The notes under the pieces are model-generated. The model saw only the letters and a list, made by a program, of their open reading frames with translations. It made no database searches and was not told the DNA's origin. Shown here one piece after another: positions 337 through 44,307 of a DNA stretch of 64,000 bases (positions are counted from its first letter, which is position 1; the number at the start of each line of letters is the position of its first letter). The DNA is taken from positions 434,001-498,000 of the forward strand of contig VCMS01000004.1 of the NCBI GenBank assembly GCA_022539475.1, written 5' to 3'. The DNA comes from Gracilaria domingensis. Taxonomy: Eukaryota; Rhodophyta; Florideophyceae; Gracilariales; Gracilariaceae. A program made the translations under genes and the position numbers.

Positions 337-1931
337 ATGGCCTGCCCCACTAACAGTCTTTTCTCCGCCCTCCGCGCCCGTGAACACGGTTTTCGATGCC
401 ATCGTACGTAGCGCTCTCTGCTCCCGCCTTGGTCGTTCGTTTCCTCCCCCTCCCGCAACATCGCTCTAACCTTTGCTCGCCTCACCCGTTCGCACAAACA
501 GGACCGGACCACCATATCTTGGGCGCTCTCCGAACCACTCCGGAAGATGAATTTTCGTTCTGGAACGTGCAGCCGCCACAGCCACCGCAAGCTGTCCCCC
601 CGTTCTCCATCTCCTTCTCCACCCGCGCGCTGCACGGCCATGCGCTCCTGGCCGCCGACGAGGATGGTGTCATCACCATCTTGGACACGCGCCGCTCCTT
701 CCGCACACAACTTCACGCCTTCGCTAACTCGCCCGAAGCGCCGCCAGCGCGCTTCCGCGCCCACGACAACGCAATCTTCGACGCCATCTGGATCAACAAC
801 GATGAGGAGGTGGCCACCGCATCGGGCGATACAACGGTGCGAGTGTTCGATGTGGAGAGACACATCCGCACCGCAGCGTGCCGTGGAGCGTCCGGAAGTG
901 TCAAGGCCGTGCGTCAGTTGTCACCGTGCGTGCTGGCCTCAGCATCTCGAGATGGTGGCATCAGCGTGTTTGACACGCGGTCGCCCACGTACTGTGACAA
1001 CAGCTACGCGCGGGAAAACTATCTTGTGCCGGTGTTGCACATCGCGGACGCCCACGCCAAGCCGCGCCCCTCCTGCGCCGTCTCCGGTACCAAGAGGCGA
1101 CGGGTGCAGGAAGAGCGCACGGTTGGCGGCAGTGTTACCGCGCTGGTGACGGTGCCCAGAAGCACCAACTACTTCTTCACCGCGGGTGCAGCAGACGGGA
1201 AGATCAAGTTGTGGGATCTCCGCAAGATCAGTCGCCCGGATGAGGATCACTTGCTCTTCACAGCCCGGCCCAGCGAGCAGCCGCGGCTCGACTGCGCGCC
1301 GAGAAGAAGGCAATACGGACTGGCGGCGCTGGATGTGAACTCGGCCGGGACGCACTTGATAGCGTCCGGAACCGACAGCTCCATCTACATGTACGACATA
1401 CACAACATGGATCTGGGCTACACGAGTGTGCTTGCGGGGCACAAGCAGACATCGTTCTACATCCGCGCCAAGTTCAGTCCGTGCGGGCGGTTTGTGGGTT
1501 CCGGATCGGCGGACAGTAAGGTGTACATCTGGGACACCTTGCGGGAGACTGAGTTGGGGCGGTTGGACCCCATCCTGCAGCTTGACGGCCATCGGGGGGG
1601 AGACGCGGCCGGCGTGGATTGGTGTCGGAGCGAGCAGCACAAGCTTGTGACTTACTCGGATGACTCGACGGCGAGGGTGTGGAGGCTGCACTCGGGGTGC
1701 AGCGCGGGCGGTGTACGGCGCGCCGGGGAGCAGCCGTCCATGAGCGCGCGACGGGTGGAGGTGAAGAGACGGCGCGTCGCGGTGAGAAGACCTGTCGCGA
1801 GCAATAGAAAGCTTAGAGATTCCGATATTCGCTCGTACTTCAAGTGCGGGTCGTCGAGCCGGGGGGGGGCGCGGCGCCGCCCGACGGCGACGGGCGGTCG
1901 GAAGGTGCGGCAGTGGTGCGGAGAAATTTAA
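337..1931 (+). CDS. CDT2: CDT2/DTL-like WD40 substrate receptor of CRL4 ubiquitin ligase
   Basis: Join of 337-403 and 502-1931, 498 residues. The protein is a WD40 propeller of the CDT2/DTL family, which docks on DDB1-CUL4 and targets CDT1 and other PCNA-bound proteins for destruction in S phase. Visible family signatures are HGHALLAADEDGV early on, AHDNAIFDAIW, TASGDTTVRVFD, SASRDGGISVFDTR and GAADGKIKLWDLRK. Near the C-terminus (about residue 460) SDIRSYF fits the hydrophobic-x-x-aromatic-aromatic core of a PIP box, as in animal CDT2, although the usual Gln is absent. The start at 337 is preferred to the unspliced ATG at 396, because removing a GTACGT...CAG intron joins MACPTNSLFSALRAREHG to the propeller in frame. 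Family assignment is firm; the first exon is inferred. Confidence 0.85.
404..501 (+). other. Spliceosomal intron in CDT2 (98 nt, phase 1)
   Basis: Donor GTACGT at 404, branch-like CTCTAAC about 35 bases before the acceptor, and acceptor ACAAACAG ending at 501. Splicing joins the ATG at 337 in frame to the conserved region. The donor hexamer matches those of the gene at 4494-5262. Confidence 0.7.
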
Positions 1932-2198
1932 CGGGCAAGCGCGTGCTGCCGGACCGCGTGGAATAAAGATCGCAGTGTCGCTACACGTATCTATGCGGGA
2001 GGCGGAACGCGAGTTTTGGGCGGCCACGCGCTCGCGCCGAGATCGAGATGCTCGTGTCGGTGCGTGCGCGACACGTGCGCAGTGCGTCGGCGAGCGCAGT
2101 GCTCGCCGCGCGACGCGCCAGCTGTTCTGCGCGTCGCCGCGCGCCCCTGCGCGCCGAGCTGGCGCCGAGATGCGCCAGCGCGCCGCGCCGCCGCCCCC

Positions 2199-3056
2199 AT
2201 GACGGCTGCCTTCCTCGCGCGCGCGCTGCCCGCCAGCCGCCGCGGCCGCGGCCGCGCCGGCCGCCGCGCGTGCGCGCGCTGCCAGGTGGGCGCGCGCGAC
2301 CAGTTCGGGCAGTACGCGGCGCGCGACGTCGCGCGGCTCAAGCGGCAGCGCCAAATCGCGCAGTCGCGCCCGGCGCGCCAGTTTCACCACCACGTGCTAC
2401 TCAACCAGGGCTCCGCCAACGCCTTCTTCCCCGCGGCGGAGCGCTTCCTGCGGGCGTTGGAGAGCGAGGCGGGTTGGACGCGCGCGGCGCACCGGCTGTG
2501 GCTGCTGCGCTCCACGGCGGACCCGACGTTTGGGAGCCTGGCGGGCGAGCCGTTTCCGCCGCGCGTGTTGATGGTGCACCAGCCGCTTTGTGAGGGCGGC
2601 GTGGCGGGCGACGGCGGACAGCGCGTCGAGACGTGGTTGCGCGCGTTGGACAGGGCGGGGCGCGCGTTGTCGTCGTTTACGTCACATTCCGTCACGTACG
2701 CTCATTGGGGACGCTTTTCGGGTCAAGTGCAGTTCGACACGCTGCTGCCGCATCATCTTGTTGCGATCGAGATCATCAACGCCGACTGGACCGATGCCGA
2801 AACCGTGCCGGCTTTGCGTGAATGTCTCTTGCGCCATGCTGCTCGCTCTACGCAGCAAGGCAAAGCCCTTGTTTTCCACGTTTTGCAGAGCACCACTGAA
2901 CCCACTTGTTTTAAGACGCTCGAAGTTTACAGCTCTATCGACGACATTCGGCAGCATCTGCAACTGCTGGATCAACAGTTTGACGACGAAATTACGCCTT
3001 GCAGAGCTGCCGTCAATCGTGTTCGTCAGTTATACAAGTGCATCGGTGCATTATGA
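2199..3056 (+). CDS. Mitochondrial-type protein with ABM/Dabb-like C-terminal half
   Basis: 285 residues from the ATG at 2199. The first 45 or so residues are rich in Arg and Ala with no acidic residues until about residue 35, which is typical of a mitochondrial presequence. The C-terminal half (from about residue 190) resembles an antibiotic-biosynthesis-monooxygenase-type ferredoxin-like fold, with the sequence LVFHVLQSTTEPTCFKTLEV followed by a His-containing helix (DIRQHLQL). The middle could hold a second, more diverged copy. I cannot name a function. The stop lies only 14 bases from the stop of the convergent COQ2 gene, so the two 3' UTRs must overlap. The longer in-frame extension to 2016 is low-complexity and was not used. 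Confidence 0.7.
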   Translation: MTAAFLARALPASRRGRGRAGRRACARCQVGARDQFGQYAARDVARLKRQRQIAQSRPARQFHHHVLLNQGSANAFFPAAERFLRALESEAGWTRAAHRLWLLRSTADPTFGSLAGEPFPPRVLMVHQPLCEGGVAGDGGQRVETWLRALDRAGRALSSFTSHSVTYAHWGRFSGQVQFDTLLPHHLVAIEIINADWTDAETVPALRECLLRHAARSTQQGKALVFHVLQSTTEPTCFKTLEVYSSIDDIRQHLQLLDQQFDDEITPCRAAVNRVRQLYKCIGAL

Positions 3057-3070
3057 GCCAACTTTTTGTT

Positions 3071-4189
3071 TTACAATACTCTTCCGCACAGAATGCTTGC
3101 CCAGATCAATGAGCCAGTAATCTGATGGCTGAGAAACGCATCAAAGCAATCTCGCGGCTTGGAAAGCTCAACTTTGTTCAGATGGTATCCACTGTGTATC
3201 ATTGCTGCCGTGATTCCCATGTAGTACGTCGTTCCTAGTCCTGCCGATGCGCCTGCCGCCAACAGAAATGCCATTTGTGCACCCATGAAACCAGCCAAGA
3301 TCTGTTTGCTACGATCGCCAAACGCTAACGCAGTCGAGCCGATGCCCAGCTTCTTGTCATCGCTCTTGTCCTGATGCGCGTAAATGGTGTCATAGATCAT
3401 CGTCCAACAAATTCCAGATCCGTATAGCAGTGCAGATGGTAGAGTGATTGAACTTGTTGTGGCCGCACAGCCGAGCAGTGCGCCCCAGTTGAACGTCATT
3501 CCCAACGCCGCTTGTGGATAAACAAAGCGTCGTTTTGCAAGTGGGTAAAACATCACTGGCAGAACGCCGAGCGACGCCACCAAGAAACTAGATTCATTCA
3601 AGCATGTAAGGATGCCCAACGCCGCCAACAGTTGGGCCACAAGGGAAGCGATGGCTGCATTGACGCTGATTTCTCCCGAGGCAATTGGGCGCTTCCGTGT
3701 TCGAGCCACCTGGCGATCTATGTCTACGTCCCATATGTCGTTGATTGTACAGCCAGCTCCGCGCATGACAGCGGCTCCGGCGTAGAACAGGGGCAGTAGG
3801 TACATCATCTGCGGAATGCTTCCATGCATGCCGATCGACCACGCACATGGCAGGAACAAAAGATTGATACCAACCGGTTTGTCCAAACGCATCAAACGAC
3901 CATATGGCGTTGTCGAGATTGTGTTGTATGCGGTTTTTGCCTGTTCTTGCAAGGCTTTAAGCTGCAAAAACATCGGCGATGACTGAAAGCTTCTGTTCGG
4001 GGATTGGGATGCAGGCACGCTGCGCAAGGAACGAGGGAACACATGGCTTTGTTGACTATAATGCTCAATCGGTGAGGGTAGTGCAGATTGTTTAGAAGAG
4101 GGGCGCTTTCGAAACATCAGGGACGAAAGCGACATGATGCGACTGCGCGGTATGGTGGCAGAGGAGATGAAGCGTGGAAGAAGAATCAT
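3071..4189 (-). CDS. COQ2: 4-hydroxybenzoate polyprenyltransferase, mitochondrial (COQ2)
   Basis: 372 residues. A UbiA-family prenyltransferase that attaches the polyprenyl tail to 4-hydroxybenzoate in ubiquinone synthesis at the mitochondrial inner membrane. Both Asp-rich motifs are visible: NDIWDVDIDRQVARTRKRP (NDxxDxxxD, Mg-diphosphate binding) and DKSDDKKLGIGSTA in the second prenyl-binding loop. LDKPVGINLLFLPCAWS is the usual family start. About eight hydrophobic segments follow. The first 100 residues are Ser/Arg-rich, fitting mitochondrial import. UbiA paralogues also act in plastid quinone and heme A synthesis, but the motif set best fits COQ2. Confidence 0.92.
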   Translation of the reverse strand: MILLPRFISSATIPRSRIMSLSSLMFRKRPSSKQSALPSPIEHYSQQSHVFPRSLRSVPASQSPNRSFQSSPMFLQLKALQEQAKTAYNTISTTPYGRLMRLDKPVGINLLFLPCAWSIGMHGSIPQMMYLLPLFYAGAAVMRGAGCTINDIWDVDIDRQVARTRKRPIASGEISVNAAIASLVAQLLAALGILTCLNESSFLVASLGVLPVMFYPLAKRRFVYPQAALGMTFNWGALLGCAATTSSITLPSALLYGSGICWTMIYDTIYAHQDKSDDKKLGIGSTALAFGDRSKQILAGFMGAQMAFLLAAGASAGLGTTYYMGITAAMIHSGYHLNKVELSKPRDCFDAFLSHQITGSLIWASILCGRVL

Positions 4190-4493
4190 GGCGGTGTATA
4201 TAGGTAACGTCTGGATAGTTTGGGACCGGCGGTGTATGGTGACGCAAAATGCATGGCTCGAGAAGAACGTTGCACGATGGTGGACGGGGAATTGGGATCA
4301 AAGGTGCGCACGTGATCCTAGTTGAACGAAAAAAGCTGAAAATGGGGCGCTGGCGCACGATTTTGGCAGGCCAACGCATGACTGCGTCACGCGGTGTTAT
4401 TATGATGAGGTACAGGGGTACGCGTTTTGGCCGGTTGGTGAGCAAACGGAACCAAAAGGGGATGGACGTGGCACAAAGTTAAGGTTTTACAGA

Positions 4494-5262
4494 TTACTTG
4501 GTTTGTGGGACCAGACGGTCGCCGGCCACCGGAACCACTTGAGCACTGAAGTTGTCGACCGAAAGCATCATTTTGATCAGGACCATTTTCCTGCCAAGCT
4601 CGTCTTCGATTTTGCGCCTGATGGCTTTATCCTTTTCAGCAATGGAAGTAACTAGGGCCACGTAGTCGTCCATCATCTTCAAAGCCCGATCAGCGCCGTT
4701 TGGCGGAATCTCGTTCTTGTCTGTGATGCGGCAGGTGATAACAGCGGCCGTCAGCGTACACAGCTGGAGGCGTTAGGCGCCATAGGAAAAAAAAAAATGT
4801 GGAAAGGTGAGCACGTACCGCCAAATGGGCCTATCATGTCCTCATGTTCGCGAATGACAACTTCAACAAACTCCGAGTAGGCATCAGAAATCTTGGCAGC
4901 CTCGTTTGCAACGTACAGCTGTCTGACCCTGTCGTAAAGCGGATCTGCTTCCATCTCGCGCGTGTGAACAGCGCGATAGTCATCAATGACGGACCGCGCC
5001 TTGTCGGTAAGCGCGTGAAGCGATTCGTCTGTATCTACCCAGTCTGCATCCTGCACAGCACCCGGTGAGTCCCGAGAAGCGTCGCAAATCGCGCGCTCAG
5101 CGAAAAAAAGGGGCGAAAGCGTACCATAAGCTCGTTCCAAGCGCCCTCAACAGAGGCGCGCAGCGGCGCCAGCGCGTCGGCGCTGGCGGGCGCGCAGAGG
5201 CGGCGGTGCGCGGCGGACAAGCGCGCGGTGCGCGCGGCGCGCACAGCCAGACAGCGGAGCAT
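4494..5262 (-). CDS. Unknown mitochondrial-type protein, three exons
   Basis: On the minus strand, join of 5262-5125, 5050-4819 and 4720-4494, giving 198 residues. The N-terminus MLRCLAVRAARTARLSAAHR looks like a mitochondrial presequence. The mature part is helical and charged (DADWVDTDESLHALTDKAR in exon 2, ALKMMDDYVALVTSIAEK in exon 3) with no membrane segment. I do not recognise the family. The model rests on three open frames that join without stops through GTACGC/GTACGT donors and CAG acceptors. It shares a divergent promoter of about 400 bp with MGDG synthase. Confidence 0.65.
4721..4818 (-). other. Intron 2 of the unknown mitochondrial gene (98 nt, phase 1)
   Basis: Donor GTACGT at 4818, a T10 tract, branch-like CTGAC, and acceptor ATCACAG ending at 4721. 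The nearer CAG at 4764 would put exon 3 in a frame with an early stop, so the distal acceptor is preferred. Confidence 0.65.
5051..5124 (-). other. Intron 1 of the unknown mitochondrial gene (74 nt, phase 0)
   Basis: Donor GTACGC at 5124 directly after an ATG codon, pyrimidine-rich interior, acceptor GTGCAG ending at 5051. It joins NELM to DADWVDTDES in frame. Confidence 0.7.
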
Positions 5263-5658
5263 CTCGGGCGCGGCGCGGGCGGGCAGGAAGAAGAAGGCGA
5301 AGGAGGAAAGGTGGGGGGGGTCCCGGGCGGGTGGATGCGCGCAATAGGCGCGATGCAGATGCAGAGGTATGCAGATGGGGCGCAATTGGCCGTGGCACGT
5401 GTGCGCGATTTACACACGCTGTCAGCGCGCACATTGAATGCAGCCGCGCGAAGACGCCCTGCGGCGAATACGGTGCTCCCCGCGTCTGGCTGCGCAACGC
5501 GCCGCGTCTCTCGCAAAAGACTGTCGCGCACGTCTCCACCACCATTCTTTTCGCCCCACGCACCGCGTCACTTTTCCCTCTCCCCTCCCGCCCGCCGCCC
5601 GACCCCCCCCTCGCTGTCTTCTTCTTCTTCCCCGCGTCCCTCGTCACTCGCCGCTCAA
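5263..5658. promoter_or_regulatory. Divergent promoter between the mitochondrial gene and MGDG synthase
   Basis: A 396-bp spacer between two outward-facing start codons. It has GC-rich blocks and a pyrimidine-rich stretch with a C8 tract at 5603-5610 on the MGDG-synthase strand. An open frame runs through it upstream of the MGDG synthase ATG, but it is Arg/Ser/Pro-rich and unlike the family. Confidence 0.5.
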
Positions 5659-7170
5659 ATGGGCGCCTCCCAAAGCGCCATTGCGCAGCAGCGCGACAAA
5701 CCGGAACGCGAGGGACTGTTGCCCACTGTCACTTCACCCTCTCCCCGTGCCATAGAGAGCTTTTCAGAGCCGCCGACTCACAATGACATGACGGCTATCG
5801 CCCTTCCGCCCACGCCTAATGCTTCCGTCGATGTTGACAAACCCTTTCACGTCCTTGTGCTTATGTCTGATACTGGCGGCGGTCACCGCGCCTCAGCGCA
5901 GGCGCTCGACGCCGCCTTCGATTCGCTCTATCCTGCGCGAGCCCAAATCACCACCGTCGACTTTTGGACCTCTGTCGCAGGCTTTCCGTTCCACAATTTT
6001 CCACGCCAGTACTCGTACATTGCGAAGAGACCATGGATGTGGAAGTTCGTCTACCTGTGGGCACTCTTTCCCCCAACTCGCTGGCTCACAGAGACCGCTT
6101 TTTCGCTGTTTTGTCACGGCAAAGTTCGCCGTTACTTTGAGTCCGTCGATCCCGACCTCATCATTTCTGTACATCCGCTCGTCAATACTCTCTCTCTCTC
6201 TTGCCTCTCCGCCATCAGACGCGACAAGCGTGCCCCATCTCCGCCATACGTCATTGTTGTGACAGATCTAGGCGGCGCCCACCCCACATGGTTTGATCCG
6301 CGTGCTGACATGGTTTACGTCCCATCCGAGCCGTTGCATCAGGCTGCTCTCGAAGCTCAAGTACCGGAAGATCGCCTACGTCTCTTTGGTTTACCCATCC
6401 GCCCAGCTTTCTGGCAAGAAACCCGATCTACTTCCCAACTTAGAGTGGAACTAGGAATGGCCCTGAACATTCCTGCTGTTCTCCTCGTCGGTGGTGGAGA
6501 TGGTGTAGGTGGCTTACAATCAATCGCTATCGCTGTGGCCGCCCGTATCGCCGAAAACTGTGGCTCAGCTGCCGCCCAACTTGTGGTTGTTTGTGGAAAG
6601 AACAAGTCGCTTCTGAATCGTTTGCAAGCCACTAGTTGGCCAATCCCCGTCATTCTTAAAGGTTTTGTCAATAATATGAGCGAGTGGATGTCTGCCTGTG
6701 ATATTCTATGTTCTAAGGCCGGACCAGGCACAATTGCTGAGGCCTGGATCCGCGGGTTGCCAATTATACTTACTGGCTTTTTGCCCGGTCAGGAAGAAGG
6801 AAATGTCACACTGGTTACTGAGTCGGGCAGTGGCGAATTCCACTCGGAGCCAGATGACATAGCCGAATGCTGCGCTAAGTGGATCAGCGACCCAGAACTG
6901 CGAGGTGCTGTTGCTGAGCGGGCAAAAAGTCTGGGTAGACCCAAGTCCTGTCTGGAAATTGCTTCCGACGTATGGGAAATTGGTCAACAAAGACAAATTG
7001 AGAGGGACGCGTTCCGGCTGCGGGCGCTCTCTTCTCCGAGTCAGCATATACCGAATGGCTATGTTGCAATGGCCAGATTTTACGTTACCAATGGTTTCCG
7101 GAGTTTGCAAAGAAGTTTTCGATACGCGTTTGGGTATTCCCAAGTTGAAATCGTCGGTCCACGCGAATAG
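5659..7170 (+). CDS. MGD1: Monogalactosyldiacylglycerol (MGDG) synthase
   Basis: 503 residues. A GT28-family glycosyltransferase that transfers galactose from UDP-galactose to diacylglycerol to make the main thylakoid lipid. The N-terminal fold begins with HVLVLMSDTGGGHRASAQAL (about residue 64), which is diagnostic of plant-type MGDG synthases. The UDP-sugar-binding C-terminal half shows LLVGGGDGVGGL, ILKGFVNNMSEWM and CSKAGPGTIAEAWIRGLPII, and ends with GQEEGN. The chosen start gives MGASQSA, a good N-myristoylation signal, and follows a C8 tract. A longer in-frame start at 5335 would add an Arg/Ser-rich transit-peptide-like leader, so plastid delivery through that form cannot be excluded. 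Confidence 0.93.
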   Translation: MGASQSAIAQQRDKPEREGLLPTVTSPSPRAIESFSEPPTHNDMTAIALPPTPNASVDVDKPFHVLVLMSDTGGGHRASAQALDAAFDSLYPARAQITTVDFWTSVAGFPFHNFPRQYSYIAKRPWMWKFVYLWALFPPTRWLTETAFSLFCHGKVRRYFESVDPDLIISVHPLVNTLSLSCLSAIRRDKRAPSPPYVIVVTDLGGAHPTWFDPRADMVYVPSEPLHQAALEAQVPEDRLRLFGLPIRPAFWQETRSTSQLRVELGMALNIPAVLLVGGGDGVGGLQSIAIAVAARIAENCGSAAAQLVVVCGKNKSLLNRLQATSWPIPVILKGFVNNMSEWMSACDILCSKAGPGTIAEAWIRGLPIILTGFLPGQEEGNVTLVTESGSGEFHSEPDDIAECCAKWISDPELRGAVAERAKSLGRPKSCLEIASDVWEIGQQRQIERDAFRLRALSSPSQHIPNGYVAMARFYVTNGFRSLQRSFRYAFGYSQVEIVGPRE

Positions 7171-12114: not shown

Positions 12115-13941
12115 CTATTTCTTCCCATTTTCCTTTCGCGACGACAAACCGTTGCTTTGATACATCTCCGAAACGCTTCTCGCATTGGTATTGAGGAACT
12201 TCTTGCGCAAAAATCGCTCATACGCTTCAGCATGTCTGACAACGAAGCCGCGGACGCCTCTGGAAGAGCTACTTTGGCACGCAGAATTCTTGAAGAGTAA
12301 CCCAGCTTTCATCGCAATCAACTGATCAGAGCATGTGGGCGGCGTACCGTCATCCGAATCCGAATGCAGAGTAGTGTCGAATAAGTAAGCAGAGTCGACC
12401 CAGTCAATGTATGTTTCAAAATGCTTGGAGAAAAGTGCGTGGGAATTCAACTGGCTCGGAACAGGAACGCCTCTTCCTGTGGTCATCTTGCGAATCATGC
12501 CGCGCATAACTGCTATCTCGGGGTCCGTGGTGACGCCGACAAGTTCCACACGATATGGCGCAACCGGCTCCGGTCTTTTCTTCGAACGCACCCAATAGAT
12601 TTCGCTGACGTCACCATTTTCCTTCTCAACATAACCCGGTCCGCGTTCATATTCATAATCCGTGTCTCGAAGCATATCAATCGTCTGCTTGGCATATTCG
12701 CACCACGACATGGTACCGTCAAACACGAGGTCTCTTCGAGTGTTCACGGCTTGTAGGAAGAGCTGCTCTGCGGCGTCCATGGAGTCCTTGTGCACAATTC
12801 GAGCCGCGAGGGGAGTGACGCTCTGAAGAACTTGGAATAACGGGTCACTGAGCTTAAAGGCATCGGCTTCAACTACGACAACGTTCGCACCATGTTGTTT
12901 CCAGAAGGTAGTCTCAGAAATCATACCAACTACGGTGGTCTTGCCAGCGCCCATTCCTCCTCCCAGCAAAACACAGAGGGGGGATTCCCCTCCTCTCGAA
13001 GACTCGCGGGAAGCAACTGGGAGGGCATCACAGGTGCTACCACCGCAGTGAATGGCCTCATCAATCTTAGAATTTAGGACCTCTGACCTCTCGGACACAA
13101 GAGCATCAAGCTGATCAATTCCTTGCCTTCTTAGCATAGACTTCCACTGCGAGTGAGCGCGTCGCGGGGAAGTGAGCTCCAGCATTTCTTCCTCCTCCTC
13201 AGGATAATACGGAAGCTCGCCTTGAAAGGTGTCACCGTTTGCAAAGGCGACGAGGTTGGCCAAGTTCATGTCGCGACGAAGCTTTGGGAATTCGACGCAG
13301 TTGGCGTAGTCGTCAAAGCGGACGATGGTTGGGTATGACGTAATATTATACTGGTTCTTGAAGTCTGGAGACTTGGGGCCATTGAGCGAGACACAAATAA
13401 TTCTGCTCCCGACAGTACGCGCCATCTCCTCGAACACAGGTCTGACTGCTTTGCAAACGGAGCAGAAGTGAGCGTAGATGAAGACCATTATGGGCATATG
13501 GTTCTCGTGCAGGGACATGAGCAAAATTGGGTCCACTTCAGGAACGGAGGCGGAGGTGGAGAGGTTCTGCTGCAGTTCATCGAGCTTTGTGTTCTGCAGA
13601 CGCAGGTGGGTGAGGCAGCTGGCATTGGCGTTGACATACTCGGACACCTGGTCCCAGCGCTTCTCAAAGTAGGCGCTCGCGGCGTCCTCCACGGTGTGGG
13701 TGAAGAGACGACGCGCCTCGGGGATGGACTTGCCGGATGCGTCGGCGATGGAGCGCGAGAAGGAGTCGATATGGTTGCGCACAAAGTGCACGGAGAGGTG
13801 CGAGTCGAAGCGGAACAGAAAGACGGTGGCGACAAACTTGGTGCGGTCGGCACGCAGCAGGGCGGAGATGTGCGGGTAGCGGTTGGAGAAGTAGGCGGTG
13901 AAGTAGTCGCCGAACGACAGCACGGCCGAGCGCTTCTTCAT
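12115..13941 (-). CDS. Thioredoxin domain fused to a zeta-toxin-type P-loop kinase
   Basis: 608 residues from the ATG at 13941. After about 130 helical residues comes a thioredoxin fold (MPIMVFIYAHFCSVCKAV, cis-Pro region YNITSYPTIVRF) with an atypical active site CSVC at 160-163. From about residue 320 a zeta-type NTP kinase domain follows: Walker A GGGMGAGKTT, VVVEADAFK, VFDGTMSWCEYAKQTIDM and YRVELVGVTTDPEIAVMRG. This second half resembles plant zeta-domain P-loop proteins, whose substrates are unknown; bacterial relatives phosphorylate UDP-sugars, but that role is not implied here. A longer in-frame ATG at 14226 lies upstream of a TATATC element on this strand (near 14190) and adds only Arg/Pro-rich sequence, so it was rejected. 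Confidence 0.85.
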   Translation of the reverse strand: MKKRSAVLSFGDYFTAYFSNRYPHISALLRADRTKFVATVFLFRFDSHLSVHFVRNHIDSFSRSIADASGKSIPEARRLFTHTVEDAASAYFEKRWDQVSEYVNANASCLTHLRLQNTKLDELQQNLSTSASVPEVDPILLMSLHENHMPIMVFIYAHFCSVCKAVRPVFEEMARTVGSRIICVSLNGPKSPDFKNQYNITSYPTIVRFDDYANCVEFPKLRRDMNLANLVAFANGDTFQGELPYYPEEEEEMLELTSPRRAHSQWKSMLRRQGIDQLDALVSERSEVLNSKIDEAIHCGGSTCDALPVASRESSRGGESPLCVLLGGGMGAGKTTVVGMISETTFWKQHGANVVVVEADAFKLSDPLFQVLQSVTPLAARIVHKDSMDAAEQLFLQAVNTRRDLVFDGTMSWCEYAKQTIDMLRDTDYEYERGPGYVEKENGDVSEIYWVRSKKRPEPVAPYRVELVGVTTDPEIAVMRGMIRKMTTGRGVPVPSQLNSHALFSKHFETYIDWVDSAYLFDTTLHSDSDDGTPPTCSDQLIAMKAGLLFKNSACQSSSSRGVRGFVVRHAEAYERFLRKKFLNTNARSVSEMYQSNGLSSRKENGKK

Positions 13942-16217
13942 GTCGGCGAGAGGGCGGGCGCAGACGGCGCGAACAGGGCGGAGTGCGGCGGGCGGCGGCG
14001 GCGCGGCTGGGCGGACGGCGGGGCGGACGGCGAGGCGCGACGGCGGGGCGGAGATTGCGCCGACCGCGGCCGATAAGATATGGGGGGCGCGGGAGAGCGG
14101 CGGCGGGCGGCGGCAGCGCGGCGGATGACGGCAGCACTCGAGCCGGCGGCGCGGCGTAGAAAGGGAGCGGCGCGCGTGCGGCGCGCGCAGATATAAGCCA
14201 AGGCGCGCACATTTGCGCACAGCCATGCGCCTTTTTCTCGCGAAGAAACGCGCCAGGGGGCTCCATGGTGGCGCGCGTGGGCGCGCCGTTTTCAGCGCAT
14301 GGCGGGCGGCGCGTTGCGTCCTTTTCCGCGCGCCGCTTTCCCACGTGCTCGGCGCTGTTGCCCGCTGCTGCGCGCGGCGCCGTCGGCGCGCGCGCCGCGC
14401 TTGTTGTCTCGCCTTCTACAGTAGACACCAGCGGTACCGCGCATCCGCGCCGCGCCGCGCCGCTCGCGCTCCGTGCGTCGATGTCTCGTCTCGCGCCCAT
14501 CGCCCCTTCTTCTCTCCTGCCGTGCCCGCCTGCCATTGGCATTTTTCCCGACTCGATGCTGCTTTGTCACCGTTGGCTAACCCCTGACGAGTGCTATCGC
14601 TGCATGCCGTATCCGCAACACCGCGCTTGTTGATACCCGCCGGCGCAGCTTCTATGGCACAACCTTTGAGCCACAGCTTACATCACCAGCGCCGTGCACC
14701 GTTACATTTGCTCGAAGAGCAATGCTCCATCCATCCATCCATCCATCCGTCCAGCAGAGCACAAACTGCGAAAGCACGCGTATCTCTCATCTTCGTCGTC
14801 GTCGGCTGTCGTCCAGGCCCGACGTCGCCTTTGACAAGCATCTGTAATTCATGCGTGTGAACGCTGTAATCGTCGCGAACCACACTCTGGTAACCATCAG
14901 GCCGTTGCGTGAAGAGCAGATGACGAGAACGCTCAAAGTTTGAGCCTCAAACAGTATCGAAAGTTACTACGACGTAACCTTAACCTTCCTTACTCCTTCG
15001 TAAGGTCCCGCCTTGTTTTGATCACGCAACAAAGCATACTCGTGCCAGCAGATACTGCTTCATTTAATACCAACTTCAGGAACAACGTATGCAAATGCAT
15101 TCTTCATTCATCACTGTATTTACACCTTGATTTCACCACACACCTTAGAGCTTACCCTTTTAGCAGTCTGGAACAGTGCAAGAATAACCAACATTCGCCC
15201 AGAACATTCCTGCCGTATCACCCAGTGCGACGGAGAATGCAATCAGCGTCCACTGCACAATTCCATTGTGCTCCTTTAAAAGTTCGAGAAGCAAGGCGCA
15301 ACGTTTTTCTACAAGTCCACCCCAAAGCATGCTGGAAATGACCACTTATTATTGGCATCCAGCTCCGAGAACACCTCAAATTTTTTTTTGTGCCACGCGT
15401 TTTACATTGGCGTCAAACCATTGTAGCAATATGGGCGTACGTGGCGAATGAATGGATTGCTACACGTACCCAGGTGATAGCAACGAAGGATAGAACGATA
15501 AGATAAGTACTCTCGCAGCACGCATCGTCCGTGCGCTCGCTCGCAGAGCCGCGTATCATAGAGTATCAATTTGTAATACCGACCGCCAACCTTGTGCGTG
15601 ATTCTTTACGATGCTGCTTTTTTCTTATTCCCCAATATCTCGTTGATGAGATGCAAAAAGTTCTACCCTTCTGCCCGCAAATTCGATGGCCATGTGGAGA
15701 AACTACCCACTTTGAAGGTCACCGTCATCAATTGGGACAACTGCGACAAACCTTACGACAAAGCAACTTGGTTGCAGCTGATGCACGCGCCGTTTCGGAG
15801 CAACCAAGTTGTTAGTACTCGAAAGGAGTAATATCGACGCGCAGAGCAACGTAGAACATCGACTTACATATGCAGCAGCCTACACATGCAGCGCCCAGCG
15901 CGTGGTGGCCAGGCTTCTCGGCGCATGCAGCAAAACGCGCCAGTATCAGCCGATGAGAACTGGACGCAGACAAGCTGTTGACGCCGTATTGAAAAGCTGT
16001 CATTGCTTTCTGACGCCCGTGAGAAGCAAGAAGGTCGGCACAGAGTACGTGCAGCGAAAAAAGACACAGTTTTTACAAGGCACAGATGACGAACGCAACA
16101 GCACAACGACAAGCCGAAACGGTTGCAACAACAAAAGCGTCGCCGAACGCTGCTGACACAGAAGGGAACAGTTGCGGAGAAGCAGTTGCAGTGTGGAGGA
16201 AGTAGTAAAAAACACAT
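13942..16217. other. Gene-poor 2.3-kb intergenic region
   Basis: The first 500 bases are GC-rich promoter-like DNA for the thioredoxin/kinase gene, with a TATA-like element near 14190. A (CATC)n tract lies near 14728-14750. The rest is unremarkable mixed-composition DNA. Short open frames near 14480-14633 and 15531-15831 have no recognisable family. A non-coding RNA cannot be excluded by eye. Confidence 0.5.
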
Positions 16218-37382: not shown

Positions 37383-40300
37383 ATGACGGAGGGATTGCTA
37401 AGAATGTTTTCCCATCCGTCGAGCTCCATTCGAGAGGCGCTGGGCGGCATAGAGCTTCGCCTCTTGCCCAAGCACCGCTTCAACCAGAGGCTTGCCCAGG
37501 TGTTCGATGCCGCCCAACAGCTCAAGAAGGAGCTTGAGTCTTTCTCAAATCAGCTCAAGGAAAAGAAGGAAGCTATTCCTCAAGAAATATGGAAAGCGCT
37601 CAATGTTCAGAGGGGCGACCTCAACTTGCGCTATCGAGCCATTATGGATGCTATCGTCCAAATCGGAGCCAATAAGCCTCATGAGAGGGTCGCCCGCATG
37701 TGGTTTGCACCATCCACAAAGAAGCGATGCCAGAAGCTTCATTCCGAAATTCGCGACGTTAAGCATACTTTGACAGAGCTCATCACCCGTCTCACCATTC
37801 TTTCCGCCACCGAGAAAATCAAGTATGAGCTTACTAGACTGGCATCACAAGACTCTCGCCACGCTCACAACAAGCACGACTTGTTGGATGACGAATCTGT
37901 CAGTATGCGTTCAGCCAAGGTCAGCAGGGAAAGACTCCGTAGCTCCTTACATGATCTCTTCAACTACCGAGATATCACAACATCCGAATCTGAACGAAAC
38001 CCCACTAGCCCAGCTACATCACAAGAGAAGTCACCAAAGCGATCCTTCAAGAACTCTTCAACAAGCTCTGCGCAGCAACAATCGTCCACCCAATCCGCCT
38101 CAACTACGTCACCCGTATTGCATTCAGAGCAGCGTGAGGACGAGCAAGATCTCTATTTCTGTTCACGTCTTGTACATCCTGTTGTCCCGCAGTCCATGTT
38201 CGATATCACCAAGCCCGACAGCATTGAATTCCAGACAAAAAGTAGAGTTCTGTCAGCGAGCCAACAGGGTGGGCACTTTGTAGCGCTGCAGGGACTGCCA
38301 GGGACAGGAAAATCAGCGCTGCTACATGCCCTCAAACACGATGAAGACATTACTGCCCATTTCACAGAAGGTGTTCATTGGTTGCCACTTCGCTCCGGAG
38401 TTGCTGAAATTCACGACGCAATAGATTGTGTTGCTTATTTGGTGTCCATTACTGGCAGCAAGGCTGAAGCAAAAGACATTAAAGAAATGAGTGACATTCA
38501 GGCTGCTGTTCAACGTTCGTCCAAGCACTTATCCTCCAAAAGAATGCTATTGCTGCTGGACAAAAGCTGGACAGAAGGAAATGTCGGCTCGGCTTTAGTA
38601 TTCAAACTTAAGCCGTTTGTCACTTCTCGTTCTGGAACGGTTATAGTATTCGTGTCTGAGGATTCTGAAGCCATATGGGACGCTCATCGTATTTCGATAA
38701 CACCGCGTGATGTTCTCGGTGAGGATACATTGTACATATTCTTGAATCATGCAGGCTTCACAAAGGAAGAACTCGTGGAGGCTGAAACCGTGGAGATTTT
38801 GCGAGTTCTGCTACTGCTATGCCATGGTTTACCGTTGGCACTGGCTATTGCCGGGAAGACGATTGCCAACACAACCAAGTGTGGAATGACTCGTAAAGAG
38901 GCTATGAAATTGTATCTTGAGCAGCATGACAGTATCTTTGATGATGACGAGATGAACATCCCGTGCATATCTGATGTCATTGGTGATCACGTGCAAGCCG
39001 CTCTGCAAATCCTTGAGCAAATGTATGATAACAACCTACCGACAGGGATCACTTTCCGAGATCTCTTCTTGGCCCTCTGCGTTGTAGACAAGGGACATAA
39101 CCTGCCCTTAGAAGTTTTACGCCAGCTTTGGAACCTATCTCCTGGTATTGCGCACACGGTGGCATCTCTTTTTAATGCTACTGGTCTCACAACATTGCTG
39201 ATGAAGCATCATCAAGGTGTGGATGAGCTTCAGATTCATGACCTTGTACATGAGTACATTTGCAGCGAGTTGAGTTTAGTGGACTTCACCAACTACCACA
39301 TGAAGCTAGTGAAGTCGTACGAGGCTGTACTGGGTGATGGAGAGCCACTGATTTCGGACGAATGTCGAGCATGGTGGACGCTCAATGTCCGTGACGAAGG
39401 ATACCATAACAGAAATCTTATTCGCCATCTTTATCATTCTGGGTTCCGCTCTGAGATGTTGAAGCTTGTTGTGCATCCCAAGTGGATATTGGCCCAACTT
39501 GATGAAGTTGGAGCGGATCAAGTGGACAATGATATAGGCTTTGTCACTGATTTTCTCACGTTTAACAATTCAACGGATACTCAAGCGCTGGAAATGACTG
39601 TGGAGGAATATGAGGAAATAGGGGCAGCAGCTCGAGTGGCAGCAAAGACTGCTGGACGCAAATCCAAGCAAGTCACGTTTCACTTTTATGATCGACTACT
39701 TGCTGTTAACAGGGTTCAAGGTATCCTCTCCGATTATCTTCAAAGCTTTGAAAACAAGGCCAGAGATCCATGTCTGAGACCCGTTCAACCATGCCTTGGT
39801 TCGCCGAAGAACCAGTTACGCAGTATAATTCGCATTCTTTCGCGTCCTCAATGCATGGTTACTCTGGCCGGAGACAACTACGTCGCTTGTGGCTGTATTG
39901 ATGGGAGAATTGTCATGCTTGACACAAGGCGAAAAAGGATTGTCGGACAATGGAGGGGCCATAGTGATGCGGTGACTTCCATGTGCCGCTCTCTTACTGG
40001 GAAAGTTATAGTTACCAGTTCCTCGGATATGACGATTAGGGTATGGGATTGTGCGTCAAGCGAACAAATTGGGGAAGTTGTACTCCCGGACGACCGACAA
40101 GTTGCGAGTACTGCAGTTACAGTCGATGAACTGTTTGTCATTGCGGGCTTCCACGACGGTTCGCTCCTGGTGTGGGATTTGGAAACCGGAGATCGAGTGG
40201 CTGAAGCGTTCAATGTGCGGAGCCCCAGTGCTTTCACGACGATTGATGTATTAGCCGGAGGCGATCGCATGATCACATCCAGCGAAGACGGTTTCATTCG

Positions 40301-41516
40301 AATGTGGAAATTGGAAACAATGGCGAACGCGAATGAAGATCTTGTTCTTCATCTCAAGGAGGACAAGAACTGGTCTGCAGAACCCTTTTCGGACGCAGTC
40401 GACTGTCTTGCCATCCACCATGAGAGTCAGATTTTTGCTGCAGCATCGAACGGTTTGATTTGTGTATCGGACTTGCGCAGTGGGACAACAAGAAGCATGT
40501 GCGACACTAGTGGAAGTTTCGGAAAGATTACTGGTATGTGTTTCGACGAGAACGGAAAACACCTGGTTTTTGGCTCCGACGGGAGAGTTGTGCATATATT
40601 GGATGTGGAGAAGAATATGCTGACCGGGAAGCCCCTTCGAGGTCACACCCAAGGCGTCTGTGATGTGGCGTTTCTCTCAAGGGGAAGTGTGGTCATTTCA
40701 GCTGCAGGTGATGAGACTGTGAGAATATGGAACGTTGAAAATCCTCGCGGCTCGCTTACATCACCTTTGCATTCAGGAACTGTAACGTCCCTCGCATTGA
40801 CGGAAAAGGGTGATGTTGTAGTCTCTGCCTCACTGGATGGTTCACTTCGTTTGTGGGACGTGAAGACTGGAACTTCAATCGGAAAGCCCCTCACCGGATA
40901 CAGAGAGAAGATAAGCGCCGTTGCGGTTTCGAACAATGGAGAACGTGTAATCTCCGGAGCGTACGATGGCAGTATTCGTTTGTGGAGAATTGATGGTGAA
41001 ACTCATGAGAGCCTGAGCACTTTCCAAGCCCATTCGGACTGGATATCAAGTATAGATATTAGTCCCACGGGAAATAGAGCCGTGAGTGCTTCCTTTGATG
41101 GTTCTGTTCGCGCATGGGATTTGCTGAAGTGTGATGGTAACTATGTAACACTCCGAGGCCATAAGGGAAAGGTTAGAACCGTGAAGATCTCAAGTGATGG
41201 AGAGCGTATTATATCGGTATCAAGACATGAAGTTCGAGTTTGGGATCTTCTGCATAGTACCTGTATTCGACGGTTTGAACAAGAGAACATCGGTCTGAAG
41301 CGAACTGTATCCATTCTTAGGTTTGCGGAAGAGGACACCGAGGAAGCTTATCCACATCCACCAATACAGTGCAAAGGGTTCCAAGTGCGATACGGAAAGG
41401 AAGTACTTGCAACGCTGCCATCTTCCATAGAATGTTACGAGTACTCTCGGGCTAACAGTACAATCTGTGCTGGACTGCTGAACGGGCAAATGGTGTTCTT
41501 GAGATTGACGTTATAG
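37383..41516 (+). CDS. NB-ARC/WD40 STAND NTPase with helical N-terminus (NLR/APAF1-like)
   Basis: 1377 residues in one open frame. Residues 1-160 are a four-helix-bundle-like helical region (FDAAQQLKKELESFSNQLKE, KLHSEIRDVKHTLTELITRL) that recalls CC-R/RPW8, MLKL or fungal HeLo signalling domains. A Ser/Thr/Gln-rich linker follows. The NB-ARC unit has Walker A GLPGTGKS (304-311), Walker B RMLLLLD (387-393), GLPLALAIAG (482 on) and a winged-helix region with LQIHDLVHEYICSELS, an MHD-like position reading IHD. From about residue 810 to 1340 come some 12-14 WD40 repeats, enough for two propellers (DMTIRVWD, DGSLLVWDLETGD, DETVRIWN, DGSLRLWDVKTG, DGSIRLW). This is the layout of a regulated cell-death or immune switch; the role is inferred. 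Confidence 0.9.
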   Translation: MTEGLLRMFSHPSSSIREALGGIELRLLPKHRFNQRLAQVFDAAQQLKKELESFSNQLKEKKEAIPQEIWKALNVQRGDLNLRYRAIMDAIVQIGANKPHERVARMWFAPSTKKRCQKLHSEIRDVKHTLTELITRLTILSATEKIKYELTRLASQDSRHAHNKHDLLDDESVSMRSAKVSRERLRSSLHDLFNYRDITTSESERNPTSPATSQEKSPKRSFKNSSTSSAQQQSSTQSASTTSPVLHSEQREDEQDLYFCSRLVHPVVPQSMFDITKPDSIEFQTKSRVLSASQQGGHFVALQGLPGTGKSALLHALKHDEDITAHFTEGVHWLPLRSGVAEIHDAIDCVAYLVSITGSKAEAKDIKEMSDIQAAVQRSSKHLSSKRMLLLLDKSWTEGNVGSALVFKLKPFVTSRSGTVIVFVSEDSEAIWDAHRISITPRDVLGEDTLYIFLNHAGFTKEELVEAETVEILRVLLLLCHGLPLALAIAGKTIANTTKCGMTRKEAMKLYLEQHDSIFDDDEMNIPCISDVIGDHVQAALQILEQMYDNNLPTGITFRDLFLALCVVDKGHNLPLEVLRQLWNLSPGIAHTVASLFNATGLTTLLMKHHQGVDELQIHDLVHEYICSELSLVDFTNYHMKLVKSYEAVLGDGEPLISDECRAWWTLNVRDEGYHNRNLIRHLYHSGFRSEMLKLVVHPKWILAQLDEVGADQVDNDIGFVTDFLTFNNSTDTQALEMTVEEYEEIGAAARVAAKTAGRKSKQVTFHFYDRLLAVNRVQGILSDYLQSFENKARDPCLRPVQPCLGSPKNQLRSIIRILSRPQCMVTLAGDNYVACGCIDGRIVMLDTRRKRIVGQWRGHSDAVTSMCRSLTGKVIVTSSSDMTIRVWDCASSEQIGEVVLPDDRQVASTAVTVDELFVIAGFHDGSLLVWDLETGDRVAEAFNVRSPSAFTTIDVLAGGDRMITSSEDGFIRMWKLETMANANEDLVLHLKEDKNWSAEPFSDAVDCLAIHHESQIFAAASNGLICVSDLRSGTTRSMCDTSGSFGKITGMCFDENGKHLVFGSDGRVVHILDVEKNMLTGKPLRGHTQGVCDVAFLSRGSVVISAAGDETVRIWNVENPRGSLTSPLHSGTVTSLALTEKGDVVVSASLDGSLRLWDVKTGTSIGKPLTGYREKISAVAVSNNGERVISGAYDGSIRLWRIDGETHESLSTFQAHSDWISSIDISPTGNRAVSASFDGSVRAWDLLKCDGNYVTLRGHKGKVRTVKISSDGERIISVSRHEVRVWDLLHSTCIRRFEQENIGLKRTVSILRFAEEDTEEAYPHPPIQCKGFQVRYGKEVLATLPSSIECYEYSRANSTICAGLLNGQMVFLRLTL

Positions 41517-42015: not shown

Positions 42016-43200
42016 TCAGTTCTCAAGAGCCGTTCTTGAAAACCTTGTCCAATCCGTGCCAATGCTCTTGGCTAAACCAATAGCTGTACCATTCCCGGCG
42101 TCGATATCATGATTTCCACACTTGCCGACATAGTACAGAAGCGCGGAACCGTCGTCAAGGGCAACAGCGTATGGATGTGATACACCTTTCTCATCCCAAG
42201 AGCCCTTTTCGCCGACATCCAACGCAACGGTGATTGGCCCCCAGTTCTCGCAATCGTTGCTCTGGCATACTCCTATTCGTGTTGTGCGGGTAGAATCAAA
42301 AATCACAACGAACATGAAATATACACTTCCTTTCTTTATAACGAAAGCTCGCTGAGTTCCACGTTCATCAATCGCCCCGGATTTTCCGGAACCTTTCAAG
42401 GCAATCCCCTTCTTTTCAAAGCATAGACCATCAGCGGAAAACGCTTTACCCACCATATACATTTTATGTTGGACATTAAATGTGTAGTAGTGCATCATGT
42501 ACCCATTCTGAACACGTACAACGTGCGGACTCGATACAAACAAGGAGTCAAATTCTTGTTCACCACCCACATCAAGCACAGCAGATGAAGGATAGGGACC
42601 TTCAAATCTAGTGAAATGTTCACCATCCTTACTCAGAGCAAGACCAATACGCATGCGAATACCTTCCATATCTGTGCCGCGAACGGAAACCGTTTCTTTG
42701 TCGCCGCCACTGTAATACATGAAGTACACGCCCGAATCTGCTCGTATGCGCGAGTTGGAATCAATTAATACATCGCCGGCACTGACATGTACAGTATCGA
42801 ATGCCCACCAATCCTCTGTATTATTCGGGAGGATGGCGCCGTTGTGAGGGCCGTCGACGCGACGCCAGGCTACACCGTCGTCAGACAGAGCGAGACCAAT
42901 GAGACCAGTGAGGGTTCCAGGAGGCGTGTGAGGGCTGTTCTCCCAATGGCGAGGCCGATATGTGTACCACATTGCAAAACGATCATCTTCGTCAGATATG
43001 TATCGATGAACGATTGGGGTGGAAAGCGCACCTACATCTGTTTCGGCTGGAGCAAATACGCGGCCAATTGTGCTTGCAGGTGGGGTTGATGTCGGTGACG
43101 CGGCGCAGGCGCTCACTCTGGGCCGGGCGAATGATGTTGTTGAGCAGCGATGGGCAAAGGGACTGGCTGCGAAAACAGGGCTGAGAAAGGCGGTCGACAT
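42016..43200 (-). CDS. Plastid-type five-bladed beta-propeller (GH43/GH32-like) protein
   Basis: 394 residues from the ATG at 43200; an earlier in-frame GTG was not used. The leader (MSTAFLSPVFAASPFAHRCS) has a Phe near the start and is Ser/Ala-rich, typical of a plastid transit peptide. The mature part has repeated strands of the glycosyl-hydrolase clan F/J propeller type (MWYTYRPRHWEN, GLALSDDGVAWRRVDGP, VYFMYYSGGDKE, GLALSKDGEHFTRFEGP, GKAFSADGLCFEKKG). Homologues occur across plants and algae and are usually annotated arabinanase/levansucrase-like with no proven enzyme activity. Confidence 0.78.
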   Translation of the reverse strand: MSTAFLSPVFAASPFAHRCSTTSFARPRVSACAASPTSTPPASTIGRVFAPAETDVGALSTPIVHRYISDEDDRFAMWYTYRPRHWENSPHTPPGTLTGLIGLALSDDGVAWRRVDGPHNGAILPNNTEDWWAFDTVHVSAGDVLIDSNSRIRADSGVYFMYYSGGDKETVSVRGTDMEGIRMRIGLALSKDGEHFTRFEGPYPSSAVLDVGGEQEFDSLFVSSPHVVRVQNGYMMHYYTFNVQHKMYMVGKAFSADGLCFEKKGIALKGSGKSGAIDERGTQRAFVIKKGSVYFMFVVIFDSTRTTRIGVCQSNDCENWGPITVALDVGEKGSWDEKGVSHPYAVALDDGSALLYYVGKCGNHDIDAGNGTAIGLAKSIGTDWTRFSRTALEN

Positions 43201-44307
43201 GGTTCGGGCACAGAGGTGTGCCGCTGAGTGCACACGCTGAGGTCAGTGATTGTGGCGGAGGTGAGAGGCTCCCTAATGTTGACGTATGTTATGGAGCAAA
43301 GGCCGCTGGGGAGAATGCAGACAGTGGCGAGATGCCGGCGATGGTGGTTTCGATGTCCAGAGATTGGAGACAGCACTCGGCTGCGATCGAGCGCTGTGCT
43401 CCAGGCAGCCGGGGTGCTCGAGCAGCAGAAGTTTCAGGCGGTAGCCTTCGAACACACGCCACTGCGGAGGCTCAAGACACGCCCTAGCATGAAGATGTTG
43501 TTGAAGACTGATAACTAGAGAAAACGTCAGGAGATTGGAGGCGCAATGGGCAGTGCTGGGTGGCGAGATTTGGCCATTGGGGCGCGGGTGCGTTTTACAG
43601 TACAGAACCGTAAGCAGACGCAACAAGTTCAAAAGCTCGCAAGACATGAGCGCGTCGCCGGTCATGGTGATGACCAAGCAGATAACAGGGAAGCAAATTC
43701 GGGCGGCGGCGAGTGGCTTCGAACACGCGCGACGCGCGACGGGAGACGGCGGTATGATCGACTTGGGGCAGCTGCATGATGCAAGCCGCATTCTGCCACG
43801 CGGCTAACTGGTCTCAGGCGGCGCGGCGGGACCAGCGCGTGACGGCGCGCTCGCGCCAGCGCGGGCAGCGCCAGCGCCTCGCAGCCGAGCGTCTCGCATG
43901 CGAGGTGTCGCAGGGCGCGCCGCAAGGCTGCCGTCGGCGCAGGTCGACGGCTGCGAAGGTATCAGCGAGGCGGCGCGGAGCTTCCAGCTCGCAGCAAGCG
44001 GCTGACGAGGCGGCGCACTTGCGCGCCTCAGCGCGGCGCGCGTCGCGCCGTTTTTCGCGCGCGGCGGCTGCGGCAGCATCGCCGTGGCTCGTTGCGATTG
44101 GCGCGGGCACGCCCCGAAAAGCGCGCTTTTTGGCGCGCGCGTCGTCTCGCGCTCCAGCCAAAATCTCATCCCGCACCCGCTCCACTTCTTGCCATCCGCC
44201 TGCCGCCGACGATACACCACCCCCCCTCCCCCCCCGCCACCATCCCCCCAAAACGCCCCCCACACACTCCCGCTCCGCCCGCTCTTTCGTCCCCCCTCCC
44301 CTCCGCC
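43201..44307. promoter_or_regulatory. Divergent region upstream of RAD23
   Basis: 1.1 kb; the 450 bp nearest RAD23 are CpG-rich with a CCAAT-like GCGATTGGCG near 44094, an exact E2F-type TTTGGCGC at 44129-44136, and C7 and C8 tracts at 44220-44226 and 44228-44235. The half nearest the propeller gene is ordinary. Confidence 0.5.

What the first reader, a model, noticed from the sequence alone, without database searches (positions are those of the whole stretch)
37383..41516. NLR/APAF1-like STAND protein with a four-helix N-terminus in an alga
One intact 1377-residue frame combines a helical-bundle N-terminus, an NB-ARC core with clear Walker A, Walker B and GLPLA motifs, and 12-14 WD40 repeats. 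That is the layout of regulated death or immune switches (APAF1, fungal HeLo-NACHT-WD40 and plant CC-R NLRs), all of which oligomerise on activation. Its long promoter lacks the C-tract and CpG features of neighbouring housekeeping genes, hinting at conditional expression. The combination in an alga looks little described.
Basis: partly seen in the sequence, partly recalled or inferred. Interest (0 to 1): 0.8.

Follow-up and report, generated by a model that had tools for sequence, protein, structure and literature searches.

The report
Red-algal NLR-like switch, altered ATPase site
A red seaweed gene encodes a protein built like the death and immunity switches of animals and plants; it belongs to a large family already known in red algae, but two normally fixed residues of its ATP-handling site carry the opposite charge, here and in the related proteins found, which suggests a regulator more than a killer.

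Summary
The observation largely holds: 37383-41516 is one intact 1377-aa frame with a helical N-terminus, an NB-ARC core, a sub-threshold APAF1_C match and 12 WD40-like motifs. The genome is Gracilaria domingensis. The gene is not alone: the genome has 88 NB-ARC matches, 27 with a TIR match just upstream, and NB-ARC-WD40 families are in print for Chondrus and Pyropia. What is new is this gene's variant. It has no close paralogue (29% identity at most over 200 residues or more) but four relatives at 57-73%. In all five, the second Walker B acid is Lys and the sensor-1 Arg is Glu, while Walker A, GLPL and MHD are kept. Of 39 paralogue places read, 39 keep the acid and 38 the Arg. The N-terminus is a predicted three-helix bundle with an uncertain first helix and no hydrophobic lead helix. 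Best reading: a nucleotide-binding, hydrolysis-altered regulator or helper in a red-algal NLR set. Function is inferred, not shown; the HeLo/RPW8/MLKL test is inconclusive; the promoter argument fails.

The parts
37383..41516 (+). whole gene, single open frame, 1377 aa
   Evidence: relatives
37383..37472 (+). residues 1-30, conserved lead segment, amphipathic, not hydrophobic; the start may be M1 or M8 (P0001 and P0004 begin at M8)
37476..37832 (+). residues 32-150, predicted antiparallel three-helix bundle
   Evidence: pLDDT block means 70-96, but 49 at 101-110
37893..37961 (+). residues 171-193, weaker helix ending in the conserved SSLHDLF segment
37971..38192 (+). residues 197-270, Ser/Thr/Gln-rich low-confidence linker
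38262..38873 (+). NB-ARC domain, residues 294-497
38292..38315 (+). Walker A GLPGTGKS, residues 304-311, kept
38547..38570 (+). Walker B LLLLDKSW, residues 389-396; second acid is Lys394
   Evidence: K in 5 of 5 of this line; D in 22 of 22, 12 of 12 and 5 of 5 paralogue places
38652..38663 (+). sensor-1 segment VSED, residues 424-427; Arg replaced by Glu426
   Evidence: E in 5 of 5 of this line; R in 21 of 22, 12 of 12 and 5 of 5 paralogue places
38826..38837 (+). GLPL motif, residues 482-485
39234..39242 (+). MHD-equivalent IHD, residues 618-620
39387..39590 (+). APAF1_C-like helical region, residues 669-736, below Pfam's cut-off
   Evidence: E 0.0026, 18.1 bits against 22.8
39852..41513 (+). 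WD40 region, 12 d-strand motifs, enough for two propellers

Best explanation
The gene encodes a member of the red-algal NB-ARC-WD40 (APAF1/NLR-type STAND) family that probably still binds nucleotide (Walker A and MHD kept) but whose hydrolysis site has been rebuilt by a conserved double charge reversal (Walker B acid to Lys, sensor-1 Arg to Glu). Its WD40 propellers receive a signal or hold a partner; its N-terminal three-helix bundle, followed by a flexible linker, makes helix-helix contacts. I propose that it works as a regulator or helper, a slow or hydrolysis-independent switch, scaffold or brake, for the many TIR- and helix-type NB-ARC-WD40 proteins of the same genome, more than as a membrane-piercing executor. 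Shown here: architecture, family membership, the conserved residue changes, no close paralogue, lack of a hydrophobic lead helix. Inferred: nucleotide binding, altered hydrolysis, partnership with paralogues, immune role.
For: Both residue changes in 5 of 5 members of the line, against D in 39 of 39 and R in 38 of 39 paralogue places read. Walker A Lys, GLPL Pro and MHD His-Asp kept in 5 of 5. No close paralogue: 29% identity at most over 200 residues or more, short pieces up to 39%, with 78 of 147 candidates scored; residues 1-180 match only themselves. The line forms a 100/100 clade on a long stem (1.64) with the red-algal NB-ARC rows. First 40 residues: highest 19-residue hydropathy 0.03-0.29 in the four members that have them, against 1.42-1.78 in four L013-type proteins. 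An NLR with non-canonical Walker B reported as a modulator is known in plants (NARY, PMC12405136 passages). TIR-type partners exist: 27 of 88 NB-ARC matches have a TIR within 1.5 kb upstream.
Against: No biochemistry or expression data. The same paper that describes NARY says that executor NLRs often have degenerate Walker B and MHD motifs and that a second-Asp change in I-2 lowers hydrolysis and autoactivates (PMC12405136), so the changes could equally mark a primed executor. The lead segment is amphipathic (moment 0.55-0.64 in three of four members), which would not exclude a CC-type membrane helix; several paralogues with canonical motifs also lack a hydrophobic lead (L012, L014, L018, L020, L024: 0.59-0.85). 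APAF1-type proteins can work with little hydrolysis (recalled). The line is not more conserved than a canonical paralogue: L013 has relatives at 70, 69 and 47%. No direct link to any partner; the gene stands alone on its contig among housekeeping genes. 48 of 87 other NB-ARC matches were not read at motif level.
Confidence: 0.42

Rival explanations
1. Executor: an N-terminal helical bundle of the HeLo/MLKL/RPW8/CC type is released on oligomerisation and damages membranes.
Confidence: 0.23
2. Non-immune APAF1-like scaffold: a constitutive housekeeping or developmental assembly platform that happens to use the NB-ARC-WD40 layout.
For: No close paralogue, four relatives conserved, among housekeeping genes; a relative (P0002) is a complete frame in a Trinity transcriptome of EukProt; promoter not distinctive.
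Against: Grouped with an expanded family, partly in clusters and partly TIR-bearing; three Pyropia NB-ARC+WD40 genes rise on oomycete infection (PMC6928737, passages). That is guilt by family only.
Confidence: 0.25
3. Active sensor with a charge-swapped but working ATPase: Lys394 and Glu426 form a reversed salt bridge and hydrolysis goes on.
For: Both changes occur together and are charge reversals in 5 of 5; the rest of the nucleotide site is kept.
Against: A Glu at sensor 1 should disfavour the gamma-phosphate contact made by that Arg in known structures (recalled); no model good enough to test it (mean pLDDT 50.1).
Confidence: 0.08
4. Decaying pseudogene.
For: Two catalytic motifs changed.
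Against: Frame intact here and in P0002 and P0004 over full length; N-terminus 54-80% and whole protein 57-73% identical among relatives.
Confidence: 0.02

Closest known systems
NB-WD40 and TIR-NB-WD40 proteins of the red alga Chondrus crispus (61 NB genes, 58 NB-WD40, 23 of these with TIR; PMC7145615 passage; PMC9806590 passage)
   Same: phylum, NB-ARC plus WD40 layout, family size and TIR share (here 88 matches, 27 with TIR)
   Different: no mention of the Walker B/sensor-1 reversal or of this N-terminus in the passages seen; the papers were not read whole
APAF1, CED-4, Dark
   Same: NB-ARC, APAF1_C-like region (sub-threshold), WD40 in APAF1 and Dark; fold matches
   Different: no CARD profile match; Walker B and sensor 1 altered
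Plant CC-NLRs (NRC4, NRC3, ZAR1, Sr35; the name ZAR1 for entry 6j5t is recalled)
   Same: helical N-terminus followed by NB-ARC; best Foldseek match NRC4 at E 6.6e-5
   Different: WD40 in place of LRR; bundle match not specific
NRCX/NARY modulator NLR pair (PMC12405136 abstract and passages)
   Same: intact P-loop, non-canonical Walker B, reported as modulator
   Different: NARY has Glu for an Asp (LIVLEDV) and a degenerate MHD; here Lys at the second acid, Glu at sensor 1, MHD kept; no adjacent NB-ARC gene
Fungal HeLo/HELL NLRs and MLKL (PMC10197012 passages)
   Same: helical N-terminal domain on a STAND protein
   Different: activity there rests on a transmembrane-prone N-terminal helix, which this gene lacks by hydropathy

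Membership tests
NB-ARC (AP-ATPase) STAND proteins | NB-ARC domain over the curated cut-off | tested here: met
   52.1 bits against 23.5
NB-ARC (AP-ATPase) STAND proteins | Walker A Gx4GK[ST] | tested here: met
   GLPGTGK[ST], kept in 5 of 5
canonical (hydrolysing) NB-ARC ATPases | Walker B with two acids (hhhhDD/E) | tested here: not met
   LLLLDKSW in 5 of 5; 39 of 39 paralogue places read keep the second acid. This lowers 'canonical ATPase', not 'NB-ARC protein'.
canonical (hydrolysing) NB-ARC ATPases | sensor-1 Arg (TTR) | tested here: not met
   Glu in 5 of 5; Arg in 38 of 39 paralogue places read, exception L035
NB-ARC (AP-ATPase) STAND proteins | MHD motif in the winged helix | tested here: met
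   IHD
red-algal NB-ARC-WD40 family | NB core groups with red-algal NB-ARC-WD40 paralogues | tested here: met
   one fork of 21 rows (16 paralogue-type, 5 of this line) apart from 8 other rows, support 89/88, below the 95/80 mark; L035 falls outside (14 of the 22 paralogue frames with a P-loop were used)
red-algal NB-ARC-WD40 family | WD40 C-terminus | tested here: met
   PF00400 E 2.4e-52; 12 motifs
APAF1 family | APAF1_C helical domain | tested here: inconclusive
   E 0.0026, 18.1 bits, below the cut-off of 22.8
APAF1 family | N-terminal CARD | tested here: inconclusive
   no Pfam CARD match at E 1 in residues 1-289; a diverged one is not excluded
HeLo / MLKL_N / RPW8 four-helix domains | profile match of the N-terminus | tested here: inconclusive
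   none for this gene or two relatives at E 1; no PDB profile match of the kind; distant link to L013 type only suggestive
HeLo / MLKL_N / RPW8 four-helix domains | fold match of the N-terminus | tested here: inconclusive
   helical-bundle rows not specific
HeLo / HELL killer domains | transmembrane-prone first helix | tested here: not met
   highest 19-residue hydropathy 0.29 in residues 1-40
plant CC-NLR | LRR C-terminus | tested here: not met
   WD40 instead
oligomerising resistosome/apoptosome | assembly on activation | not testable with these tools
   needs purified protein

The most novel reading that the evidence does not exclude
A STAND switch with its catalytic charges swapped: Lys in place of the Walker B acid and Glu in place of the sensor-1 Arg, fixed throughout a Gracilariales line, so that ATP binding without normal hydrolysis sets its state. 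Lacking a hydrophobic killer helix, it would serve as a hub or brake that pairs with TIR- and HeLo-like NB-ARC-WD40 sensors, a helper-type NLR network in red algae that arose apart from that of land plants.
Probability: 0.18. Interest if true: 0.75.

Novelty: new variant of a known kind. Interest (0 to 1): 0.42.

Why it matters
Red algae split from the green line before plant NLRs took shape (recalled), and how their intracellular immunity works is little tested. A conserved family member with a rebuilt nucleotide site beside dozens of TIR- and helix-type relatives gives a concrete, single-gene test of whether red algae divide NLR work between sensors, executors and regulators. It would also test whether a STAND switch can work with its catalytic charges reversed.

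Tried and rejected
Pseudogene: rejected, frame and motifs conserved in relatives. Unusual conservation as a mark of importance: rejected by a control, since the canonical paralogue L013 has relatives at 70, 69 and 47%. Promoter features as a sign of conditional expression: rejected. Pfam GldM_1st hit of the N-terminus (E 0.00096, 19.6 bits against 25): below cut-off and not seen in the two relatives scanned, taken as a coiled-coil by-match. Specific fold of the N-terminus: no Foldseek match at E 0.001; VIA rows topped by designed three-helix bundles and TBK1, with CC-NLRs below, so no family named; MLKL and HeLo entries are not among the 50 rows shown. The model of 1-818 is poor (mean pLDDT 50.1, pTM 0.29), so nothing is claimed from its geometry. 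The second protein search (alignment A2) was flooded by WD40 proteins; of its 96 rows the five of this line were used, plus P0017 and P0088 as outside rows in the tree. Shuffled-column control for the N-terminal profile match: 40 shuffles, highest 20.8 against 24.6 observed; weak, because shuffling destroys helix periodicity, so reversed sequences were added (at most 18.9). The profile of L013/L012 N-termini found no MLKL or HeLo chain in the PDB. Of the 27 loci first fetched, five (L031-L034, L036) were left out of the table because their frames were broken or incomplete; they were read and agree with the rest. Not done: dN/dS (no DNA of the relatives), motif reading of the 48 remaining NB-ARC matches, naming the species behind P0002, P0004 and P0005.
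Full report
What was checked. The frame 37383-41516 is open for 1377 codons from an ATG. Pfam finds NB-ARC at residues 294-497 (E 7.3e-14, over its cut-off) and many beta-propeller models from about residue 816 on. A pattern count gives 12 WD40 d-strand motifs. Between them lies a region that matches APAF1_C at 669-736, E 0.0026, below the curated cut-off; the paralogue L011 passes the cut-off with its corresponding region.

Where it comes from. The genome has 77.9 million bases in 680 contigs. The paralogue L013 is 100% identical over the query to a protein listed as Gracilaria domingensis on a contig of 215,676 bases, the length of the contig from which it was fetched. The window is thus from that red alga. 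Neighbours are housekeeping genes: ArfGAP, a DEAH-type helicase, Raptor, NAD synthase, AsnRS, mRNA capping enzyme, a CAND1-type protein, a UBA/XPC-binding protein. Contig C4 holds no second NB-ARC match.

The family. NB-ARC has 88 matches in the genome (a lower bound), 46 of them in open frames of 1200 codons or more; 27 of the 88 have a TIR_2 match within 1.5 kb upstream on the same strand, and 27 of the 42 TIR matches are so placed. This parallels Chondrus crispus, with 61 NB genes, 58 of them NB-WD40 and 23 of these with TIR (PMC7145615, passage; TIR-NBARC-WD40 in Chondrus also in PMC9806590, passage). In Pyropia three NB-ARC+WD40 genes rise on oomycete infection (PMC6928737, passages). Red-algal proteins with NB-ARC, winged helix and APAF1_C are mentioned in PMC8891106 (passages), and two NB-ARC families of multicellular red algae in PMC8307928 (passages). 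The family is therefore known. As to Gracilaria: a full-text search for 'gracilaria' with 'nb-arc' gave one paper, PMC8307928, whose passages describe no such gene of Gracilaria. The other nine searches showed nothing on it in titles or abstract starts, but of the larger ones only part was listed (20 of 57, 8 of 15, 8 of 81), and most subscription papers are not in the library.

This gene within the family. Searching with residues 1-790 gave 10 proteins: the gene itself, four relatives at 56-72% identity by that listing (one named Agarophyton chilense), and five NB-ARC proteins with TPR domains at E 6.9e-7 or weaker (only the 7991 candidates sharing most words were scored). In its own genome its NOD region matches paralogues at 29% identity or less over stretches of 200 residues or more (short pieces up to 39%; 78 of 147 candidates scored), and residues 1-180 match nothing else. 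A tree of 30 NB cores puts the five proteins of this line in one clade (100/100) on a stem of 1.64 changes per column, inside a fork of 21 red-algal rows (89/88, below the program's 95/80 mark) apart from eight other rows; the paralogue L035 falls outside that fork on a long branch. A control tempers the conservation: L013 has relatives at 70, 69 and 47%.

The altered nucleotide site. In this line Walker A, GLPL and the MHD-equivalent are kept, but the second Walker B acid is Lys (LLLLDKSW) and the sensor-1 Arg is Glu (VSED, ISED or ITED), in 5 of 5 sequences. All 39 fetched paralogue places were read: 22 with a P-loop in the first fetch (Asp at the second Walker B position in 22, Arg at sensor 1 in 21), 12 of a second fetch chosen mostly as the closest by sequence (12 and 12), and five with broken or incomplete frames (5 and 5). 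In sum 39 of 39 and 38 of 39, the exception being L035. They include near-identical copies (L021/L022/L026, L028/L029, L032/L033, L043/L044), so they are fewer independent lines. 48 of the 87 other matches were not read. Plant NLRs with a non-canonical Walker B are known; one, NARY, is reported as a modulator that does not kill, but the same paper says that executor NLRs often have degenerate Walker B and MHD motifs and that a second-Asp change in I-2 lowers hydrolysis and autoactivates (PMC12405136, abstract and passages). The change therefore speaks for altered hydrolysis, and only weakly for which role follows. Hydrolysis was not measured.

How it most likely works. Probable nucleotide binding without normal hydrolysis, no hydrophobic killer helix, a Ser/Thr-rich linker (residues about 197-270) and two propellers fit a regulator or helper somewhat better than an executor. 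I put this at 0.42, a non-immune scaffold at 0.25, an executor at 0.23. Steps shown: architecture, family, residue changes, no close paralogue, hydropathy. Steps inferred: nucleotide binding, loss of hydrolysis, partners, immune role.

Verdict. Its rarity in algae was overstated and its promoter argument does not hold. The more interesting feature, missed because the Walker B was taken as clear, is the conserved charge reversal at two catalytic positions.

Noticed in passing
L013 (G000:C58:43191-50499), 1820-5737 +: NB-ARC-WD40 paralogue with canonical motifs, a hydrophobic first helix and a sub-threshold MLKL_N match (E 0.066; relative P0105 0.035; not P0103, P0104): a better candidate than the window gene for a HeLo-type executor in a red alga.
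   Followed up: partly
L035 (G000:C1:196360-203359), 1957-5196 -: A second divergent NB-ARC frame: sensor-1 Arg absent, MHD reads HS, and it falls outside the red-algal fork of the tree on a long branch.
   Followed up: partly
G000:C28:272000-299000; copy read as L030: Tandem TIR-NB-ARC copies (four with PF00931 matches, a further one with stops); in the one copy read, the first Walker B acid is Gly (LFLVGDIW).
   Followed up: partly
L012-L029 and L035, N-terminal 140-190 residues: Other helical N-termini fall into types by profile comparison: the L018/L019/L024/L028 type with the L015-L023 type (96%) and with L027 (96%), L012 with L013 (95%), and an L014/L020/L025 type; beside TIR and the window gene's type.
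   Followed up: partly
window 12115-14226 -: One frame joins a thioredoxin domain and a Zeta_toxin-type kinase fold (PF00085, PF06414).
   Followed up: no
window 42016-43233 -: 405-aa frame next to the finding with no Pfam match at E 0.001; its sequence looks like a glycoside hydrolase of the five-bladed propeller kind (impression only).
   Followed up: no
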